Notes under the pieces: model-generated
The model's database searches: none
What the model was told of the DNA's origin: nothing
The model's input: only the letters and a program-made list of their open reading frames with translations
Shown here: in pieces, positions 870 through 11,204 of the stretch
Layout of the letters: each line of letters opens with the position of its first letter
Numbering within the stretch: position 1 is the first letter of the stretch
Assembly: GCA_018303945.1 (NCBI GenBank)
Contig: JAGVXD010000015.1
Location: 1 to 33,108, forward strand
Direction of reading: 5' to 3'
Length of the DNA stretch: 33,108 nt
From: Candidatus Pacearchaeota archaeon
Lineage (GTDB): Archaea; Nanobdellota; Nanobdellia; Pacearchaeales; GW2011-AR1
Made by a program: the position numbers and the translations under genes

Positions 870-1346
870 ATTCCTTCTTATGAGGGCGTAAAGGGTAAAG
901 AATTTGCTGAAAGCGATGCTATTCTTGAAAGAGACCTTAAAGAACATGAAGTTCCAGACCATCAAGTATGGTTGGAATTATTTAGGGGAAATAGAGAGCT
1001 TCTTGGGCAGGTTGCACAGAAAATATTCAAGGCAGGCATGGACGCATATAAACATGATACAATGATGGGAATCTACTTGGCAGGAGAATCAGCAAAACCT
1101 CATGTAAGGGCGGCTATTCCGGATAGGCTTGTGGACGGGTCTCAGCTTGATGGCAGGTACTTTCTCGACAGTGTCTATGGTCGCTTCGTCGGTGTAGCGC
1201 CAGAGGCGCTTAGTGCGCCCGATCAACTTGTAAAACCTTACACTCTTGCAGATTTGGAAGCAGTTGATGGCTCTATCAGAGGGCTTGAAGGATTTGTCAA
1301 AACTGAGCTAATTAGCCCAATTGTTCAGTTAAGAAGCAAGTTGTAA
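870..1346 (+). pseudogene. 5'-truncated gene remnant of unknown function
   Basis: An open frame follows a TAA at 867-869 and runs to the stop at 1346. No ATG or GTG is in frame near its beginning; the first usable start is TTG at 972, giving 124 aa. The residues before that TTG already read like ordinary protein (GKEFAESDAILERDLKEHEV), which suggests the true start was lost. The product is soluble, with an amphipathic helical N-terminal half, and I do not recognise the family. Codons 80-107 of the open frame (1108-1191) recur in degenerate form at 1734-1817. The surrounding DNA carries no other intact gene, consistent with decay, although a functional TTG-initiated protein cannot be excluded. 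Confidence 0.45.
1108..1191 (+). repeat. 84-bp segment duplicated at 1734-1817, copy 1
   Basis: This internal part of the remnant gene aligns without gaps to 1734-1817, with 8 mismatches in 84 positions by eye. Identity is complete over the last 27 bases. Here the frame is open. Confidence 0.8.
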
Positions 1347-1563
1347 TTTTATTCTAATATGGATAACCTCATTGATTGCTGTACACATTAGGAATTATCT
1401 ATCACGGAACTAAGAAAACTTTCAATTTTCGAAGCAATCAAGAATTGAAAATTCTCGAGGATTCTGGACAAATATGCACTATAATCAATAGAATTTGCGA
1501 TAATTGGTATTTTACTCCTTTAAAATATATTAACCAATTATATAATTTACACTGAACGAATAC

Positions 1564-1623
1564 TTTTATACCTTCATCCTGAGTATTTTTTGTCCTAGCT
1601 AACTATGCAACAAGGATGCATAG
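1564..1623 (+). other. TATA-like box followed by a hairpin (possible small RNA start)
   Basis: CTTTTATACC at 1564-1573 resembles an archaeal TATA box. About 30 nt downstream is a perfect 7-bp inverted repeat, CTATGCA (1603-1609) and TGCATAG (1617-1623), around a 7-nt loop. No open frame follows, so a short non-coding transcript is possible but unproven. The rest of 1347-2018 holds only the degenerate 84-bp repeat copy and AT-rich sequence; I see no intact gene there. Confidence 0.2.
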
Positions 1624-1733
1624 GGCAGACTGGGCTACACGTCCTTTCACTAAGGCAATTTATTGCTATAAAATACAGCTTCAACAGAAATGAAGGGGCA
1701 GTGATATATAATTAAGTGAACGGGCTACTCTGG

Positions 1734-1817
1734 GGGCGGCTATTCCGAATAGGCTTGAGAACAGGTCTCAGCTTAATGGCAGGAACAATCTCGACAGTGT
1801 CTATGGTCGCTTCGTCG
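1734..1817 (+). repeat. 84-bp degenerate copy of 1108-1191, copy 2
   Basis: This copy aligns ungapped to 1108-1191 (76 of 84 identical). Most differences are changes to A in the middle part. The frame that is open in copy 1 gains stops just outside the repeat here, so it is a fragment and not a gene. Confidence 0.8.
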
Positions 1818-2018
1818 AATAGCCCTGTCAGCCGTTAGGACTTATATTATGTTATATGAAAAATTATGCTCTTATGAAAATCTTTTCAGCGCTTATCAAA
1901 AAGCAAGACAGGGAAAAACTAGAAAGTTATATATACTAAAATTTGAGAAGGACTATTAAGGGCGTAAAGATAAATCTTGAATTGGGCGTATAAATTGGCT
2001 ATTTAAATTAACAGGTGA

Positions 2019-2399: not shown

Positions 2400-2484
2400 C
2401 GCCCGGACCAAGATTTGAACTTGGGAATCGCTTGCGCGAAACAAGGTTAGCAACCTTGCGCCGTAACCGCTGGGCCATCCGGGC
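2400..2484 (-). tRNA. tRNA-Ser(GCU)
   Basis: Read on the minus strand this folds as a type II tRNA. The acceptor stem GCCCGGA pairs with TCCGGGC. The D arm is GCC/GGC. The anticodon stem CAAGG/CCTTG encloses loop TTGCTAA, giving anticodon GCT. A long variable arm (TCGC-GCAA-GCGA) follows, then a T arm CCAAG-TTCAAAT-CTTGG. The discriminator base is G, as usual for serine, and CCA is not encoded. A T-run on the minus strand around 2381-2385 could terminate transcription. Confidence 0.95.
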
Positions 2485-2507
2485 ATGGAAATGACTAAAC
2501 TTATAGG

Positions 2508-2516
2508 GTTTTAAAG
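2508..2516 (-). promoter_or_regulatory. TATA-like box of the tRNA-Ser gene
   Basis: CTTTAAAAC on the minus strand is centred about 28 nt before the tRNA 5' end, the usual place for an archaeal TATA box. The whole upstream stretch 2485-2522 is repeated without change at 3316-3353. Confidence 0.55.
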
Positions 2517-2536
2517 ATTATGTTTAGACGAAAATC

Positions 2537-3277: not shown

Positions 3278-3353
3278 TTAGCAATCCCGCACCGTAACCG
3301 CTGGGCCATCCAGGCATGGAAATGACTAAACTTATAGGGTTTTAAAGATTATG
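3278..3353 (-). repeat. Duplicated tRNA-Ser 5' half plus promoter
   Basis: These 76 bases align without gaps to 2447-2522 with 5 mismatches. All five lie in the tRNA-derived part; the 38-bp upstream part with the TATA box is identical. On the minus strand the copy runs from the promoter through the acceptor 5' strand and D arm and stops exactly after the anticodon loop (GCTAA). It points toward the antitoxin-toxin pair. No 3' tRNA half follows. Confidence 0.9.
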
Positions 3354-3369
3354 ATTCGTTGCAATTATG

Positions 3370-4434: not shown

Positions 4435-6657
4435 ATGAAAAGAGGTAAGGGTGATGGGTTGCATGCAGACCTGAGTATCTTAATTTTACTGCTAGCTTTT
4501 GGTTTTATTCTGCTTGTTTCTTCCGGAGAAGCTTCTCTACTGACTTGCTCATTCAATACAAGCAACACTACATGCTCTGGAGCAGTAGTTTGGTACCAGC
4601 AGAATGACAGCGGAGGATTTCACAATGCACATCTTCAAAATGTCACAAATTCCTCATTTTCTCCCAGATATAATTATACCTTATGCTGCAGTGCGACAGA
4701 TACATTGTCCAATAGTTGTGAGCAGGCCAGTGTTTTAAAAATATCCAATATAACTAACGCTCATGCACAGACATCTAATTTTAGCGGCACAGCTTACTCT
4801 TATGACTTATGCTTAGCTGCAAATCCTGGAAAGGTATTGTGCAAATATGAAGTAAACACTACCGGCAGTACATGTCCTACTGCCGGATACACTTGCCTTG
4901 CAAGCATGGCATCAAGCGAGTCAGGAGATTCTAATCAGACCAATGCTCATGCTGGCCCATGCACCGAATATAGTTTAAAGATATGCTGCACCGTTGATAG
5001 TCCGCCAAGTGTTACTAATGTCGTGTTAAATGCAACTTCAATTACTAACTATACTACTGAAAACTTGACTCTTTCTTATCAAATTAATGATCCTGAAAAC
5101 ATAACTATGACAAATGTTACTGATTGGAGAAAAGAGGGAAAAAGTCTGGCGTTGTTGAATTTAGCTTTCGCTACAAATGTCTCTGATGCAGTGGTTAAAT
5201 CTGTGAGAGATTATAGTACATATGTGAATAATGCCACACTTGGGGGTGGAATTTCTACGGCTGTTCCAAAATGGAATTCAAATGGAAAGATTGGCGGCTC
5301 GTATGATTTCGACGGAGTGAACGACTGGATAAATGTAAGTAGCAACTTGTCTTCTTTTAACTCCCTCCCTATAACTGTTTCGGCTTGGTTTAAAATGAAT
5401 ACTACGAATTCCAATTCGGCTGTTGTAAACAAATATTTATCCGGCTCAAATAATGGATATCATATATTCTTTAATGGGGCGAGGGTTAGCTCGTGGTATT
5501 ATTGCAATTCTACAAGTTTGGTAAGCCCTGGGACTACAGTTACAAACTATTCAGACAATAAATGGCACCATACAGCTTTAATTGTAAACACTAGCGGAGG
5601 ATTTCTATACATGGATGGTTCTCTGGCATTGTCTTCAGCTTGGGGAGCACAGACTCCGTGTGCTACATCTACCAACTTAAGCGTTAGGTTGGGAATTTAT
5701 ACAAGTTATTTTAACGGGAGCATTGATGAAGTAACGATATTCAATGATTCTCTATCTTTCTCGCAATTAAGTACGATTTACAGGGAAGGATTAAACAACC
5801 ACTCAATAAATACGTGGGTTGCCGAAGAAACTACAAAAGGGGAGAATTGGAGTGTAGCTATAACTCCCAGCGATGGATACAACGATGGGGCAACGGTTGT
5901 CAGTAATACATTAAGAATACGCAATAGTCCTCCAAATGTGACTCTAATTTCTCCCCCTAATGCAAACTCCACTACTTCAAGGTCTATCAATTTTACATGG
6001 AGCTCCAGTGATAATGATGGAGACAACATGAGTTATCAGCTCAATATTACAAGATATCCATTTCCTTCCGGAGGAGACAACAGATTAATTTCTACTGCGG
6101 CAACAAGCCATTTGCCCAATCCAGAGCTGGCTTACTTGGCAGATTATAGCAATTATTATTACAATTGGACTGTAAGAGCAAATGATAGTGATGAATACGG
6201 TGCCTGGGCAGGGGAAAGGACCTTAAATATTACTGCATTGATAATGATAAATGCCACAGTAGATTTAGTGCAGTTTGGCTCCATAGACTATCTTGCTTTT
6301 AATGACACAAATGATAACAGTCCGGCTCCGTTTGTCATTCAAAATGATGGCAACACATACCTAAATGTTACTGTTTCCGCTACACAATTATGGAGGTCTG
6401 TAAATCTTCCTTCTAAACATTACAAATTCAAAGCCAACTTTACTGCAAGCGAAGGCGGGGCATTTAAGTGGGCTTCATCTACAACATCATACACTAATAT
6501 GACTTCAAGTGCACAATTGGGAATAGCGATGTTTAACTATACAAATGTAAACGATACGGCAGAATTTGATATATACGTTGAAGTGCCTGCTGGAGAACCT
6601 GCTGGAAACAGGAACTCTACAATAACATTTGATGCATCTTTGGGAGGAGAACCTTAA
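4435..6657 (+). CDS. Exported LamG-domain surface protein
   Basis: This 740-aa exported protein has an N-terminal hydrophobic segment (about residues 13-30, LSILILLLAFGFILLVSS). A Cys-containing Thr/Asn-rich region follows, with two repeats near residues 35-185. A LamG/concanavalin-like domain spans about 237-445, with ALLNLAF, YDFDGVNDWINVSS, WHHTALIV and GSIDEVTIFNDSL as typical strands. A fibronectin/Ig-like domain lies at about 500-600 (SPPNVTLISPPN to YNWTVRANDSDE), then a beta-rich C-terminal region. N-x-S/T sequons are very common. No C-terminal membrane segment is present, so anchoring is by the N-terminal segment or it is released. The LamG module resembles the last LamG of the 1897-aa protein at 27039. 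The stop overlaps the next start (TAATG), which points to coupled translation. LamG domains often bind glycans; the ligand here is unknown. Confidence 0.8.
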   Translation: MKRGKGDGLHADLSILILLLAFGFILLVSSGEASLLTCSFNTSNTTCSGAVVWYQQNDSGGFHNAHLQNVTNSSFSPRYNYTLCCSATDTLSNSCEQASVLKISNITNAHAQTSNFSGTAYSYDLCLAANPGKVLCKYEVNTTGSTCPTAGYTCLASMASSESGDSNQTNAHAGPCTEYSLKICCTVDSPPSVTNVVLNATSITNYTTENLTLSYQINDPENITMTNVTDWRKEGKSLALLNLAFATNVSDAVVKSVRDYSTYVNNATLGGGISTAVPKWNSNGKIGGSYDFDGVNDWINVSSNLSSFNSLPITVSAWFKMNTTNSNSAVVNKYLSGSNNGYHIFFNGARVSSWYYCNSTSLVSPGTTVTNYSDNKWHHTALIVNTSGGFLYMDGSLALSSAWGAQTPCATSTNLSVRLGIYTSYFNGSIDEVTIFNDSLSFSQLSTIYREGLNNHSINTWVAEETTKGENWSVAITPSDGYNDGATVVSNTLRIRNSPPNVTLISPPNANSTTSRSINFTWSSSDNDGDNMSYQLNITRYPFPSGGDNRLISTAATSHLPNPELAYLADYSNYYYNWTVRANDSDEYGAWAGERTLNITALIMINATVDLVQFGSIDYLAFNDTNDNSPAPFVIQNDGNTYLNVTVSATQLWRSVNLPSKHYKFKANFTASEGGAFKWASSTTSYTNMTSSAQLGIAMFNYTNVNDTAEFDIYVEVPAGEPAGNRNSTITFDASLGGEP

Positions 6658-7149: not shown

Positions 7150-8352
7150 ATGAAGAATTATAAGATTTTTGCTGTTTTGATTATATCTATTTTTCTAATT
7201 GCTTCTGTAAGCACATTGGGAATAACTCCGGGAAGAGTTAATCAGGATTTTATACCTGGAGTTAAACAAACATTCAAAGTTACAGTGATTAACTCTGAAC
7301 AGAGAGACGTTAATCTGGCTGTGAAAACAAGAGGAGAATTGGCAGGGATTATTGAATTAAGAGAGAATGAGTTTTCCATGAAATCTTCTGAAAGGGAAAG
7401 AGAAATTTCTTTTGATGTAATTTTGCCGGACACTCTGACTCCAGGGCTTCATACTGCCGAGGTTGTTGTATCACAACTTCCTTCTAATTTGCCAAGTTCT
7501 CCCGCAACGGTGGGGTTATCGCTTGCTGTTGCAACACAAATCCATATTTATTCTCCATATCCTGGAAAATATATTGAAGGAAACTTAAAGGTAAGTGGGA
7601 GCGAGAGCCAGAAGAATCTTTATCTTTCTTTGACAAGCAGAGGTAAAGAAAATATAGAAAGAGCAAAAGCAACTATAAATATATTTAACGCCGGAGGCGA
7701 GAGCATCAAACAATTAGAAACACAGAGTGTTTCACTCTCTCCTGGAGAAAGAAAAGAAATTGGGGCTGTCTGGAATGTGGATGCCTCAAGAGGAAGATAT
7801 ACTGCTAAGGCAGTCCTTAATTATGATGGACAAAATGTACTATATGAAGAACAATTTGAAGTTGGAGAGCTTGCCCTTGATATATTGAACTTATTTGTGA
7901 CTGATTTTACACTTGGAGGGATAGCAAAGTTCAATCTACTCATTCACAATAAGTGGAGTGAGCCAATTAATAGTGTGTATGCTCAAATGAGGGTTTTGGA
8001 TAGTTCATTTTCAGAGATTGCAGATGTTAAATCAGCAACTTATGACATACCTTCCGGAGAAAGAACTACTTTAGTATATTATTGGGATACTAAAGATTTA
8101 AGGGAAGGATTATATAACGCCAACATATTGCTCAACTATGCTGATAAGAAGACTCAACAGGATGTAAAGCTTGATGTAAGCAAGGATTCTATTCAAGTAA
8201 TTGGCCTTGGGAGAGTAATTTCAACCGAAGAAAAAGGAACAGGAGGCAATAAAACTATCACTATATTGATAGTGATAATAGGATTCTTAGTTGTTCTAAA
8301 CATACTCTGGTTTGTCGTTCTTAGAAAAAGAAGGATGAGAAACAGCAGATGA
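7150..8352 (+). CDS. COG1470/CARDB-like anchored surface protein
   Basis: This 400-aa protein has an N-terminal signal segment (about 5-24), then tandem Ig/CARDB-like beta domains, and a C-terminal membrane segment (about 371-391) followed by a basic RKRRMRNSR tail. It is anchored with the bulk outside. The opening LGITPGRVNQDFIPG is typical of archaeal COG1470-like proteins. The 373-aa protein at 10083 has the same layout (GVSPAGYSADF, YPGKY, LGELFVNL versus VGELALDI), so the two are paralogues. A Shine-Dalgarno-like GGAGGG lies 9 nt before the ATG. It is probably co-transcribed with 4435 and 6657 as a three-gene unit. Confidence 0.75.
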   Translation: MKNYKIFAVLIISIFLIASVSTLGITPGRVNQDFIPGVKQTFKVTVINSEQRDVNLAVKTRGELAGIIELRENEFSMKSSEREREISFDVILPDTLTPGLHTAEVVVSQLPSNLPSSPATVGLSLAVATQIHIYSPYPGKYIEGNLKVSGSESQKNLYLSLTSRGKENIERAKATINIFNAGGESIKQLETQSVSLSPGERKEIGAVWNVDASRGRYTAKAVLNYDGQNVLYEEQFEVGELALDILNLFVTDFTLGGIAKFNLLIHNKWSEPINSVYAQMRVLDSSFSEIADVKSATYDIPSGERTTLVYYWDTKDLREGLYNANILLNYADKKTQQDVKLDVSKDSIQVIGLGRVISTEEKGTGGNKTITILIVIIGFLVVLNILWFVVLRKRRMRNSR

Positions 8353-8363
8353 GAGCAACGTAA

Positions 8364-8373
8364 TCTTTATAAG
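8364..8373 (+). promoter_or_regulatory. TATA-like box before pseudogene copy 1
   Basis: TCTTTATAAG lies about 40 nt before the ATG at 8409. A second TATA-like CTTATAAG follows at about 8386-8393. Copy 2 has a comparable ATTTATAAGC at 9101-9110. Confidence 0.4.
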
Positions 8374-8408: not shown

Positions 8409-9047
8409 ATGGAGCACATACATAAAGTCATAATTGTACTTTTGATATTGGCATTGATATTTGCCGTTGCCGCTGTGACTATGGCTTCTACATTCTTTGA
8501 TTTCAAGACATGGAGCTTTAAGGAATTTATCTGTATACTCATAATGAGTCTCTTCCCGGTTTTCTAGGGCTCACAATTACAGATATTGCCACGGTAAATC
8601 TCACCGTTGAATCAAATTTAGCAATTAATTTCTCTACTGATAACATTAATTGGGGTTCTGGAAGAGTTATTGTTGGAGCCGATAATGCGACTTTGAATAC
8701 TGCTGGAAACAGCACAGGGGGAACACCAGTCTCGCAGAGAAATGGAAACTGGACAAATAATACTGCTGGACTTGTTCTGGAAAATATAGGAAACGCGTTA
8801 ATGAATATTTCAATTAATGTGACTAAAAATAAGCTGCAGAGGATTTTTTCCCGGACTTATTAATGCAACATTCTATGATGTGAATGCAACCTTCATAAAT
8901 GCTACTGGATATAAGATATGCGAGTCTCTTAATTTTTCAGAGAACACAAATTCACTTAGAATTGACGTATTTTTGCAAGTCCCAAGAGATTCTATAACTG
9001 GCTCTCTGTCTGACACAATAACTGCCATAGGCATAGCATCCACTTAA
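8409..9047 (+). pseudogene. Broken surface-protein gene, copy 1 of a tandem pair
   Basis: The first 39 codons (MEHIHKVIIVLLILAL onward) match copy 2 with one base difference in 117. After KE the frame runs into TAG at 8565-8567. The homologous sequence continues in another frame (ESLPGFLGLTITDIATVNL) up to NISINVTKN, then hits TAA, and resumes in a third frame (YDVNATFINATGYKICESLN) to the stop at 9045-9047. Compared with copy 2, the second hydrophobic segment and a 52-nt central piece are missing. It can no longer encode the full protein. The ancestral product would have been an exported, sequon-rich beta protein of the same type as copy 2. Confidence 0.8.
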
Positions 9048-9100
9048 TAGAAATTTCACGGTTCAGAAAATCTGTCCGCTATATAACGAAGAGGCATAAT

Positions 9101-9110
9101 ATTTATAAGC
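9101..9110 (+). promoter_or_regulatory. TATA-like box before pseudogene copy 2
   Basis: ATTTATAAGC lies about 40 nt before the ATG at 9146, a position like that of the box before copy 1. Confidence 0.35.
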
Positions 9111-9145
9111 CCTTCCAACCTGCTAATAGAAATCTTAAAAAGAGC

Positions 9146-9887
9146 ATGGAGCACATACATAAGGTCATAATTGTACTTTTGATATTGGCATTGATATTTG
9201 CCGTTGCCGCTGTGACTATGGCTTCTACATTCTTTGATTTCAAGACATGGAGCTTTAAGGAAAAGCTGTTCTTGTTCTTGCAATTTTCTTGGTGGCAATT
9301 ACGGGCGCAGCTATGATAATAAGTTTTATTTATGCTGCAAGACCAATCTGGTTCACAGGATTTGTAACTGAATTTGCAACAATTAATTTAAGTGTAGAAT
9401 CTTCTCTTGCAATAAATTTCTCCACAGATATAATTAATTGGGGTTCTGGAAGAGTTGTTGTTGGAGCCGATAATGCGACTTTGAATACTGCCGGCGTAAA
9501 TACGGGCGGTTCTAATCCATCGCAGAGAAATGGAAACTGGACAAATAATACTGCTGGACTTGTTCTGGAAAATATAGGAAACGCGTTAATGAATATTTCA
9601 ATTAATGTGACTAAAAATTCGGTGGGACGAATCCAGTTTACAAGCTCAACTTTAGCGAAGCTGAAGCCGGAAGCTGCAGAAAATTTGCTATTGGACTTAC
9701 TAATGGTTCATTCTATGATGTGAATGCAACCTTCATAAATGCTACTGGATATAAGATATGCGAGTCTCTTAATTTTTCAGAAAGTACAAATTCACTGGGA
9801 ATTGACGTATTTTTGCAAGTCCCAAGAGATTCTATAACTGGCTCTCTGTCTGACACAATAACTGCCATAGGCATTGCTACTACTTAA
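9146..9887 (+). pseudogene. Frame-shifted surface-protein gene, copy 2 of a tandem pair
   Basis: Three frames together give one sensible protein of about 247 aa. The first (MEHIHKVIIVLL to SFKEK) shifts after an A-run near 9260-9265 into AVLVLAIFLVAITGAAMIIS. That frame shifts again at a GGG run near 9624 into TNPVYKLNFSEAEAGSCRKF and ends at TAA 9885-9887. One extra base in each homopolymer would restore a continuous frame. The protein would have two N-terminal hydrophobic segments, then an Asn-rich beta domain with the WGSGRVVVGADNATLNTAG core. The middle piece alone is open from about 9289 to 9723. True mutation and sequencing error both remain possible. Confidence 0.75.
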
Positions 9888-9890
9888 TTA

Positions 9891-9933
9891 TATGAAAGGA
9901 AATTAATAATCAGATAAATTCTTTCCTTTCATA
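9891..9933 (+). terminator. 12-bp inverted repeat after the pseudogene pair
   Basis: TATGAAAGGAAA (9891-9902) and TTTCCTTTCATA (9922-9933) form a perfect 12-bp stem around 19 nt, starting three bases after the stop of copy 2. No long T-run follows, so it may be an RNA end, a processing site or a small mobile-element remnant and not a classical terminator. Confidence 0.4.
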
Positions 9934-10082: not shown

Positions 10083-11204
10083 ATGAGAAAGAGGGTTATT
10101 GTAGTGCTGGCTATTTTGCTAATGCCTCTTATCAGTGCTGCTGTAGGGGTAAGTCCTGCGGGATATTCTGCTGATTTTACTCCAAGTCTTAAAAAATCAT
10201 TCGGTTTCTATTTCACTCTAGATCCAGGAGTTAAGGGGGAAGCTTTTATTGAGGGAGATTTAGCTCAATATGCGACATTAAGCCGTAAATCTTTAGAGGG
10301 TCCAGGGGATGTGGAGGTTATTCTTTCTCTACCCAGAGATATTGAATTGCCCGGAGTTCATACCCTCTTTGTTGGCATTGGACAGCTGCGTGACAGCCGT
10401 CAACAAGGTGTAGCTTTGGTAGGAAATGTTAAAGGAACAATCCGTATACGCGTTCCTTATCCTGGAAAATACGCAGTCGCCTCGCTTGAAGCTAAAGACA
10501 CAAAAGCAGGCGATCCTGTGGAATTTAAAGCACTAATAACTAATCTTGGCAAGGAAGATATAGCGGCTAAATCAGATATTTCAATATATGATGGAAGAAA
10601 CAAGAGCATTAAAAATATTGAGCTTCCAATCACACCTATAGAAAGCACAAAAACCATTGAAATTCCGTATTCTTTTGATACTAAGGAATATGGAGCTGGG
10701 AGATATCTGAGTAAATTAAAAGTTGAATACGGAGGCAAAAACTCTGCTGAAGCAGAAATATCCTTCAGACTTGGAGAGCTCTTTGTAAACTTAATATCTA
10801 CAACAAGAGAATTAACAAGAAATACTATAAATAAATTTGATATAGTCATTGAAAGCAATTGGAATGATCCACTAGAAAATGTATATGCAAATGTAAGAAT
10901 ACCTGAATATAATATTAATTTTCCTACTCCTTCAGTCAATCTTGCCGGTTTTCAAAGTGCAGTTCTTACTGGGTTCTTTGACACAGGCGGAATACCAGAC
11001 AATGTAAAATCTCTGAAAGTCAATGTCCAGATTAATTATGCTGGCAAGACAACTGAAGAAATAGTGACAGTAAAATTCAAACGAGAAAATAATTATCTTA
11101 TTGTTGGGTTAATAATAGGGATAATAGTGCTAGTGGCTATAATTATAGCTCTTGTTTGGTGGATGCGAAAGATATCTAAGAAGGAGAAAAGGAGAAAGGG
11201 CTAA
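10083..11204 (+). CDS. COG1470/CARDB-like anchored surface protein (paralogue of 7150)
   Basis: This 373-aa protein has a cleavable-looking signal (residues 1-19), an opening VGVSPAGYSADFTPSLKKSF, Ig/CARDB-like domains through about residue 330, a C-terminal membrane segment (about 338-360) and a basic RKISKKEKRRKG tail. The N-out topology is inferred. It shares layout and short motifs with the 400-aa protein at 7150 (YPGKY; LGELFVNL), so they form a duplicated pair. The stop overlaps the next start (TAATG), so the following small TM protein is probably translated by coupling. It is the first gene of a four-gene surface run. Confidence 0.75.
   Translation: MRKRVIVVLAILLMPLISAAVGVSPAGYSADFTPSLKKSFGFYFTLDPGVKGEAFIEGDLAQYATLSRKSLEGPGDVEVILSLPRDIELPGVHTLFVGIGQLRDSRQQGVALVGNVKGTIRIRVPYPGKYAVASLEAKDTKAGDPVEFKALITNLGKEDIAAKSDISIYDGRNKSIKNIELPITPIESTKTIEIPYSFDTKEYGAGRYLSKLKVEYGGKNSAEAEISFRLGELFVNLISTTRELTRNTINKFDIVIESNWNDPLENVYANVRIPEYNINFPTPSVNLAGFQSAVLTGFFDTGGIPDNVKSLKVNVQINYAGKTTEEIVTVKFKRENNYLIVGLIIGIIVLVAIIIALVWWMRKISKKEKRRKG

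What the first reader, a model, noticed from the sequence alone, without database searches (positions are those of the whole stretch)
8409..9887. Two tandem surface-protein genes, both broken, with a mosaic identity pattern
The first 117 nt of the two copies differ at one base and the 3' ends are nearly identical, but the middle has diverged. Copy 1 lost the second hydrophobic segment and a 52-nt block. Copy 2 needs just one extra base in an A-run and one in a G-run to be intact. This suggests gene conversion of the ends, and possibly phase variation or antigenic switching by homopolymer slippage.
Basis: partly seen in the sequence, partly recalled or inferred. Interest (0 to 1): 0.6.

Follow-up and report, generated by a model that had tools for sequence, protein, structure and literature searches.

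The report
Two decayed tandem archaeal surface-gene pairs
Two neighbouring copies of a small archaeal cell-surface gene pair, intact in every related genome examined, have been partly made alike by gene conversion and both broken by multi-base deletions, so they look like ordinary decaying duplicates and not a one-base on/off switch.

Summary
The two tandem copies, their identical blocks and their broken frames are real, and the identity pattern is far beyond chance. The first 117 nt is not the start of the surface protein. It is the 5' half of a separate upstream gene ("MINI", about 65 aa, one membrane helix), which precedes 42 of 55 homologous surface-protein genes ("FAM") in related genomes. 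MINI and FAM usually overlap by 4 nt, so FAM normally lies in another frame. The second lesion is about 13 nt short of the family spacing in copy 2 and about 65 nt short in copy 1. It is not one base in a G-run, and the runs are only AAAA and GGG. All 55 full-length FAM frames examined in relatives are open, and no intact FAM was found elsewhere in this genome (87% complete). Best reading: two decayed MINI-FAM modules in a conserved surface-gene cluster, homogenised by gene conversion whose tracts end at indels. Mis-assembly is the main rival. Slippage-based phase variation is not supported.

The parts
7150..8352 (+). X1: conserved flanking gene (400 aa, secreted and C-terminally anchored, Ig-like/FxLYD-like); upstream neighbour of the MINI-FAM module in relatives
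8366..8373 (+). TATA-like box TTTATAAG, 43 nt before the MINI-1 start codon
   Evidence: direct reading; promoter role inferred
8409..8567 (+). MINI-1 remnant: ORF of 52 aa; 8409-8525 matches the MINI profile (positions 4-34 of 65); C-terminal linker and strand missing
8526..8560 (+). Copy 1 junction lesion: MINI 3' half, FAM start codon and most of the FAM membrane helix missing
8561..9047 (+). FAM-1 remnant: one frame 8561-8830 (profile 36-116), another frame from 8831 (profile 149-203 at 8862-9038); about 65 nt deleted at 8830/8831 against the family
8732..8830 (+). Identity tract shared exactly with 9520-9618 (99 of 99 nt), ending at the indel
9102..9109 (+). TATA-like box TTTATAAG, 44 nt before the MINI-2 start codon
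   Evidence: direct reading; promoter role inferred
9146..9316 (+). MINI-2 remnant: ORF of 56 aa; 9146-9262 is the MINI part, the rest reads FAM helix DNA out of frame
9262..9887 (+). FAM-2 remnant: frame 9262-9624 (profile 5-119, start codon missing) and frame 9618-9887 (profile 122-203 at 9618-9878); about 13 nt short at 9618
10083..11204 (+). X2: conserved downstream flanking gene, distant paralogue of X1
4435..6657 (+). LamG surface protein of the same cluster; its C-terminus carries a FAM-like half-domain (6316-6636)

Best explanation
The locus holds two tandem copies of a two-gene module, MINI (about 65 aa single-helix protein) followed by FAM (about 200 aa single-helix surface beta-domain protein), between X1 and X2 in a conserved surface-gene cluster of a small archaeon. 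The copies diverged while FAM still coded for protein. Patches were then copied between them by gene conversion, with the near-identical tracts ending where the copies differ by indels. Both modules later decayed through multi-base deletions at the MINI/FAM boundary and in the middle of FAM, leaving neither able to make an intact product. Shown: two modules, MINI and FAM homology, mosaic identity, multi-base shortfalls against the family, open frames in relatives. Inferred: conversion as the mechanism, the order of events, and that the deletions exist in living cells.
For: MINI precedes 42 of 55 FAM genes, most often with a 4-nt overlap (17 of 41). Block A fits the MINI profile (E 5e-10 and 1e-9) far better than FAM (E 0.03). 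FAM-2 spans profile 5-119 and 122-203 in two frames with a 13-nt shortfall; FAM-1 spans 36-116 and 149-203. All full-length FAM ORFs in relatives are open. Same cluster order in relatives. Identity runs beyond shuffles. Differences in the diverged middle favour codon position 3, p = 0.0024. Intact mosaic pairs in G085 and G056. The long neighbouring ORFs of the window are open, so random indel error is unlikely.
Against: Both copies are hit at the same two sites, which is unusual for independent decay. FAM genes lie near contig ends more often than expected in related assemblies (11 of 50 within 400 nt against 3.0 expected), so this locus is hard to assemble. No sister genome of the same species or genus was available.
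Confidence: 0.65

Rival explanations
1. Assembly artefact: the population carries several MINI-FAM alleles or copy numbers, and the assembler built a collapsed or chimeric consensus that dropped segments where alleles differ.
For: FAM genes lie near contig ends more often than expected in 50 related assemblies; G028 is split inside FAM across two contig ends; lesions sit exactly at the ends of identical tracts in both copies.
Against: Frame bookkeeping: MINI to FAM is out of frame by the same amount in both copies, and both middle junctions are out of frame, so no in-register swap between the two assembled copies gives an intact FAM. Third alleles would be needed. The long neighbouring ORFs are open.
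Confidence: 0.25
2. Silent cassettes for antigenic variation: the broken copies are stores that are copied into an intact expression copy elsewhere.
For: Conserved ends with a divergent interior, and conversion tracts.
Against: No intact FAM in the genome; both copies keep a TATA-like box 43-44 nt upstream; in relatives tandem copies are intact genes. The genome is only 87% complete.
Confidence: 0.05
3. Homopolymer-slippage phase variation.
For: A change of one base would mechanically join the two FAM-2 frames at 9618.
Against: Tracts are AAAA and GGG only; the first site is a gene boundary; the second is about 13 nt short of conserved spacing; no broken homologue seen in relatives apart from those cut by contig ends.
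Confidence: 0.02
4. Programmed frameshifting joins the frames into one two-helix protein.
For: The MINI-to-FAM step is the same in both copies (frame -1).
Against: In relatives these are two separate overlapping genes with their own starts and the same relative frame as the common 4-nt overlap; the second steps differ between the copies (+1 and -1).
Confidence: 0.03

Closest known systems
Tandem paralogues under concerted evolution by gene conversion
   Same: Sharp near-identical tracts next to diverged segments; the pattern recurs between intact tandem pairs in G085 and G056.
   Different: Here both copies are also broken, and tracts end at deletions.
Pseudogene pairs from tandem duplication
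   Same: Multi-base deletions break frames that are conserved in relatives; no intact copy found.
   Different: Near-identical patches persist between the decayed copies; native status is not proven without reads.
Contingency (phase-variable) loci with homopolymer tracts
   Same: Surface-protein gene out of frame.
   Different: No long tract, multi-base lesions, homologues uniformly in frame.
Archaeal threads, CanA-type cannulae and chaperone-usher pilins (donor-strand filament subunits)
   Same: Weak fold resemblance of an intact FAM relative (7pnb, 9h8b, 9bab, FimG/PapE); the segment before the beta-domain is unstructured in the single-chain model.
   Different: No Foldseek E below 1e-3, no sequence match in the PDB; not a membership.

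Membership tests
FAM (uncharacterised single-helix surface protein of this archaeal family, defined here) | Full-length match to the 205-position profile in one frame | tested here: not met
   Both copies match only in pieces in different frames: remnants of the family, not intact members
FAM (uncharacterised single-helix surface protein of this archaeal family, defined here) | Location between X1 and X2, preceded by MINI | tested here: met
MINI (about 65 aa helix plus one strand, defined here) | N-terminal helix motif | tested here: met
   E 5e-10 and 1e-9, positions 4-34
MINI (about 65 aa helix plus one strand, defined here) | C-terminal linker and GNVxLxIE strand | tested here: not met
   No match beyond position 34 in either copy
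Homopolymer phase-variable locus | Long slippage-prone tract at the frame break | tested here: not met
   AAAA and GGG only
Homopolymer phase-variable locus | Run-length variation among reads or strains | not testable with these tools
   No reads held; no sister genome found
Gene conversion between tandem paralogues | Identity tracts longer than chance with sharp ends | tested here: met
   0 of 10,000 shuffles
Silent-cassette antigenic variation | An intact expression copy | tested here: inconclusive
   None found, genome 87% complete
Pseudogene | Disrupting lesions where relatives are intact | tested here: met
   the lesions themselves need read confirmation
Donor-strand filament subunit | Significant fold match | tested here: not met
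   Best E 5e-3, TM 0.36; 9bab TM 0.45 at E 0.25

The most novel reading that the evidence does not exclude
MINI is a paralogue of FAM cut after its first beta strand (membrane helix, linker, one strand), made in translational coupling with FAM. It could be a membrane-held strand donor that caps or anchors FAM subunits, as in donor-strand filaments, in an undescribed surface-structure cluster of small archaea. In this genome both MINI copies have lost the strand and both FAM copies are broken, so the structure would be lost or remodelled.
Probability: 0.1. Interest if true: 0.6.

Novelty: new member of a known kind. Interest (0 to 1): 0.3.

Why it matters
The broken pair itself is an ordinary kind of decay. 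The comparison uncovered a conserved, overlapping MINI-FAM gene pair, with no Pfam match for FAM, inside a conserved surface cluster of archaea. It also gives a caution: FAM sits near contig ends more often than expected, so frame breaks there in metagenome assemblies need read-level checks.

Tried and rejected
Homopolymer slippage was rejected on tract length and family spacing. A single two-helix protein was rejected: no relative examined has one, and the first helix belongs to MINI. My own earlier reading, a double FAM N-terminus made by fusion (note), was dropped once MINI was found. Simple swapping between the two assembled copies cannot restore a frame (frames). Viral contigs held no relative, and the genome-contig scan gave only one short hit that I judge spurious. 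Pfam and NCBIfam gave nothing useful for FAM. PDB sequence search gave nothing and the fold search nothing significant. Literature searches found no description of this cluster.

Full report
Setting. The window is the whole of contig C22 of an 803,700-base genome in 22 contigs, 87% complete. Archaeal-type PheT, PheS and PyrH models match genes in the window. That it is a DPANN archaeon is inference from the archaeal genes and small genome. The finding lies inside a cluster: LamG protein (4435), a 163-aa protein (6657), X1 (7150), the two copies, X2 (10083), a 147-aa protein (11204), further surface proteins, then MoxR, DUF58 and VWA genes. The same order recurs across the taxonomic family.

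The observation. The two copies, their near-identical first 117 nt, the 52-nt block missing from copy 1 and the alternation of identical and diverged segments are all there. Identity runs of 109, 99 and 76 columns were not reached in 10,000 shuffles (the 109 joins two stretches across a gap). In the diverged middle, 24 of 41 differences fall at codon position 3 of the FAM frame (p = 0.0024), so FAM was under coding constraint while the copies diverged.

What the gene is. A profile from 43 relatives (A2) found FAM in genomes of the same family; 60 of 181 have a match, some of them only the related half-domain at the end of very large proteins. FAM is about 200 aa: one N-terminal helix, then a beta-domain with two invariant cysteines. 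All stand-alone homologues listed have no stop inside, and 55 distinct ones span both ends of the profile in one open frame (56 rows, one gene listed twice). The own genome has only the broken pieces plus the half-domain of the LamG protein and one weak partial hit.

The correction. Looking between X1 and FAM in relatives showed a second small gene, MINI: about 65 aa, M-x-x-x-K-[IV]-[IV]-V-x-L-L-x-x-A-I, a linker, then G-N-V-x-L-x-I-E and stop. It directly precedes 42 of 55 FAM genes; several of the others lie at contig edges. In 17 of 41 cases with a defined start the two genes overlap by 4 nt, and in 24 of 41 FAM is in the frame relation seen in the window. MINI aligns with FAM's first 54 residues (probability 95%, E 3.7e-8), so it is a paralogue of FAM's helix and first strand. 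The window's first 117 nt match MINI (E 5e-10 and 1e-9) and barely FAM (E 0.03). In relatives with tandem copies the repeated unit can be the whole pair (G085: two MINI, two FAM).

The lesions. In both copies MINI stops matching at position 34 of 65, and FAM's start codon is gone; in copy 1 most of FAM's helix is gone too. In the middle of FAM, copy 2 is about 13 nt short of the family's nearly constant spacing and copy 1 lacks a further 52 nt. The local runs are AAAA and GGG. Multi-base deletions fit; slippage does not. The ends of the identical tracts coincide with the indels, which is what is expected if conversion tracts stop at heterology (inference).

Is it the genome or the assembly? 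The long neighbouring ORFs of the window are open, so random indel error is unlikely. Swapping segments in register between the two copies cannot make an open FAM, because out-of-frame steps occur at both places in both copies. On the other hand, FAM lies within 400 nt of a contig end in 11 of 50 related genomes against 3.0 expected (P about 1e-4, using rounded contig counts, a hand-compiled list and incomplete contig lengths), and a ribosomal-protein control lies near contig starts less often (Fisher p = 0.007). So this locus is hard to assemble and reads are needed. I put real decay at 0.65 and artefact at 0.25.

How it most likely works. Intact relatives: MINI and FAM are made together from one transcript by coupled translation and held at the membrane by their helices with the beta-domain outside (inference from anatomy). 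The model of an intact relative has mean pLDDT 88 with residues 36-48, between helix and domain, unstructured. Its weak fold neighbours include archaeal threads (the thread filament is described in PMC9715654, of which I saw the abstract only), cannulae and chaperone-usher pilins, none with E below 1e-3. A filament role with MINI as strand donor is therefore a lead only. In this genome neither copy should give a full product.

Verdict. An ordinary kind of event, a decayed tandem pair with gene-conversion patches, in an undescribed but conserved surface module. The switch idea fails.

Noticed in passing
window 1094-1840: Diversity-generating-retroelement signature: an RT-16 RNA match (RF03019, 1594-1733) is followed by a template-like repeat (1734-1817) whose partner at 1108-1191 lies in ORF 972-1346; all 8 mismatches in the 84 nt are at template adenines.
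   Followed up: partly
G000 C21:50456-51551 (L128, L131) and C17:6335-6973 (L130): An 81% identical copy of window 1588-1900 lies directly before a reverse-transcriptase gene on C21; another reverse transcriptase is on C17; none was found in the window, so the window's repeat pair may be served in trans.
   Followed up: partly
window 2447-2525 and 3278-3356: A 79-nt direct repeat, 92% identical; the first copy overlaps the 5' part of the tRNA-Ser gene (2399-2485, - strand), so the second may be a tRNA fragment or an integration scar.
   Followed up: no
window 9891-9933: Inverted repeat just after the FAM-2 stop, predicted to fold (-11.8 kcal/mol); possible transcription-end hairpin.
   Followed up: no
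relatives, e.g. G144:C1, G191:C13, G138:C4: The C-terminal half of the FAM domain recurs in very large surface proteins (open frames up to about 9,000 aa) and in the LamG protein of this window (6316-6636).
   Followed up: partly
G028:C4 and C25; G140:C2; G203:C19; G007:C29 and others: Assemblies of related genomes break near FAM more often than expected, which suggests copy-number or allele variation in populations.
   Followed up: partly
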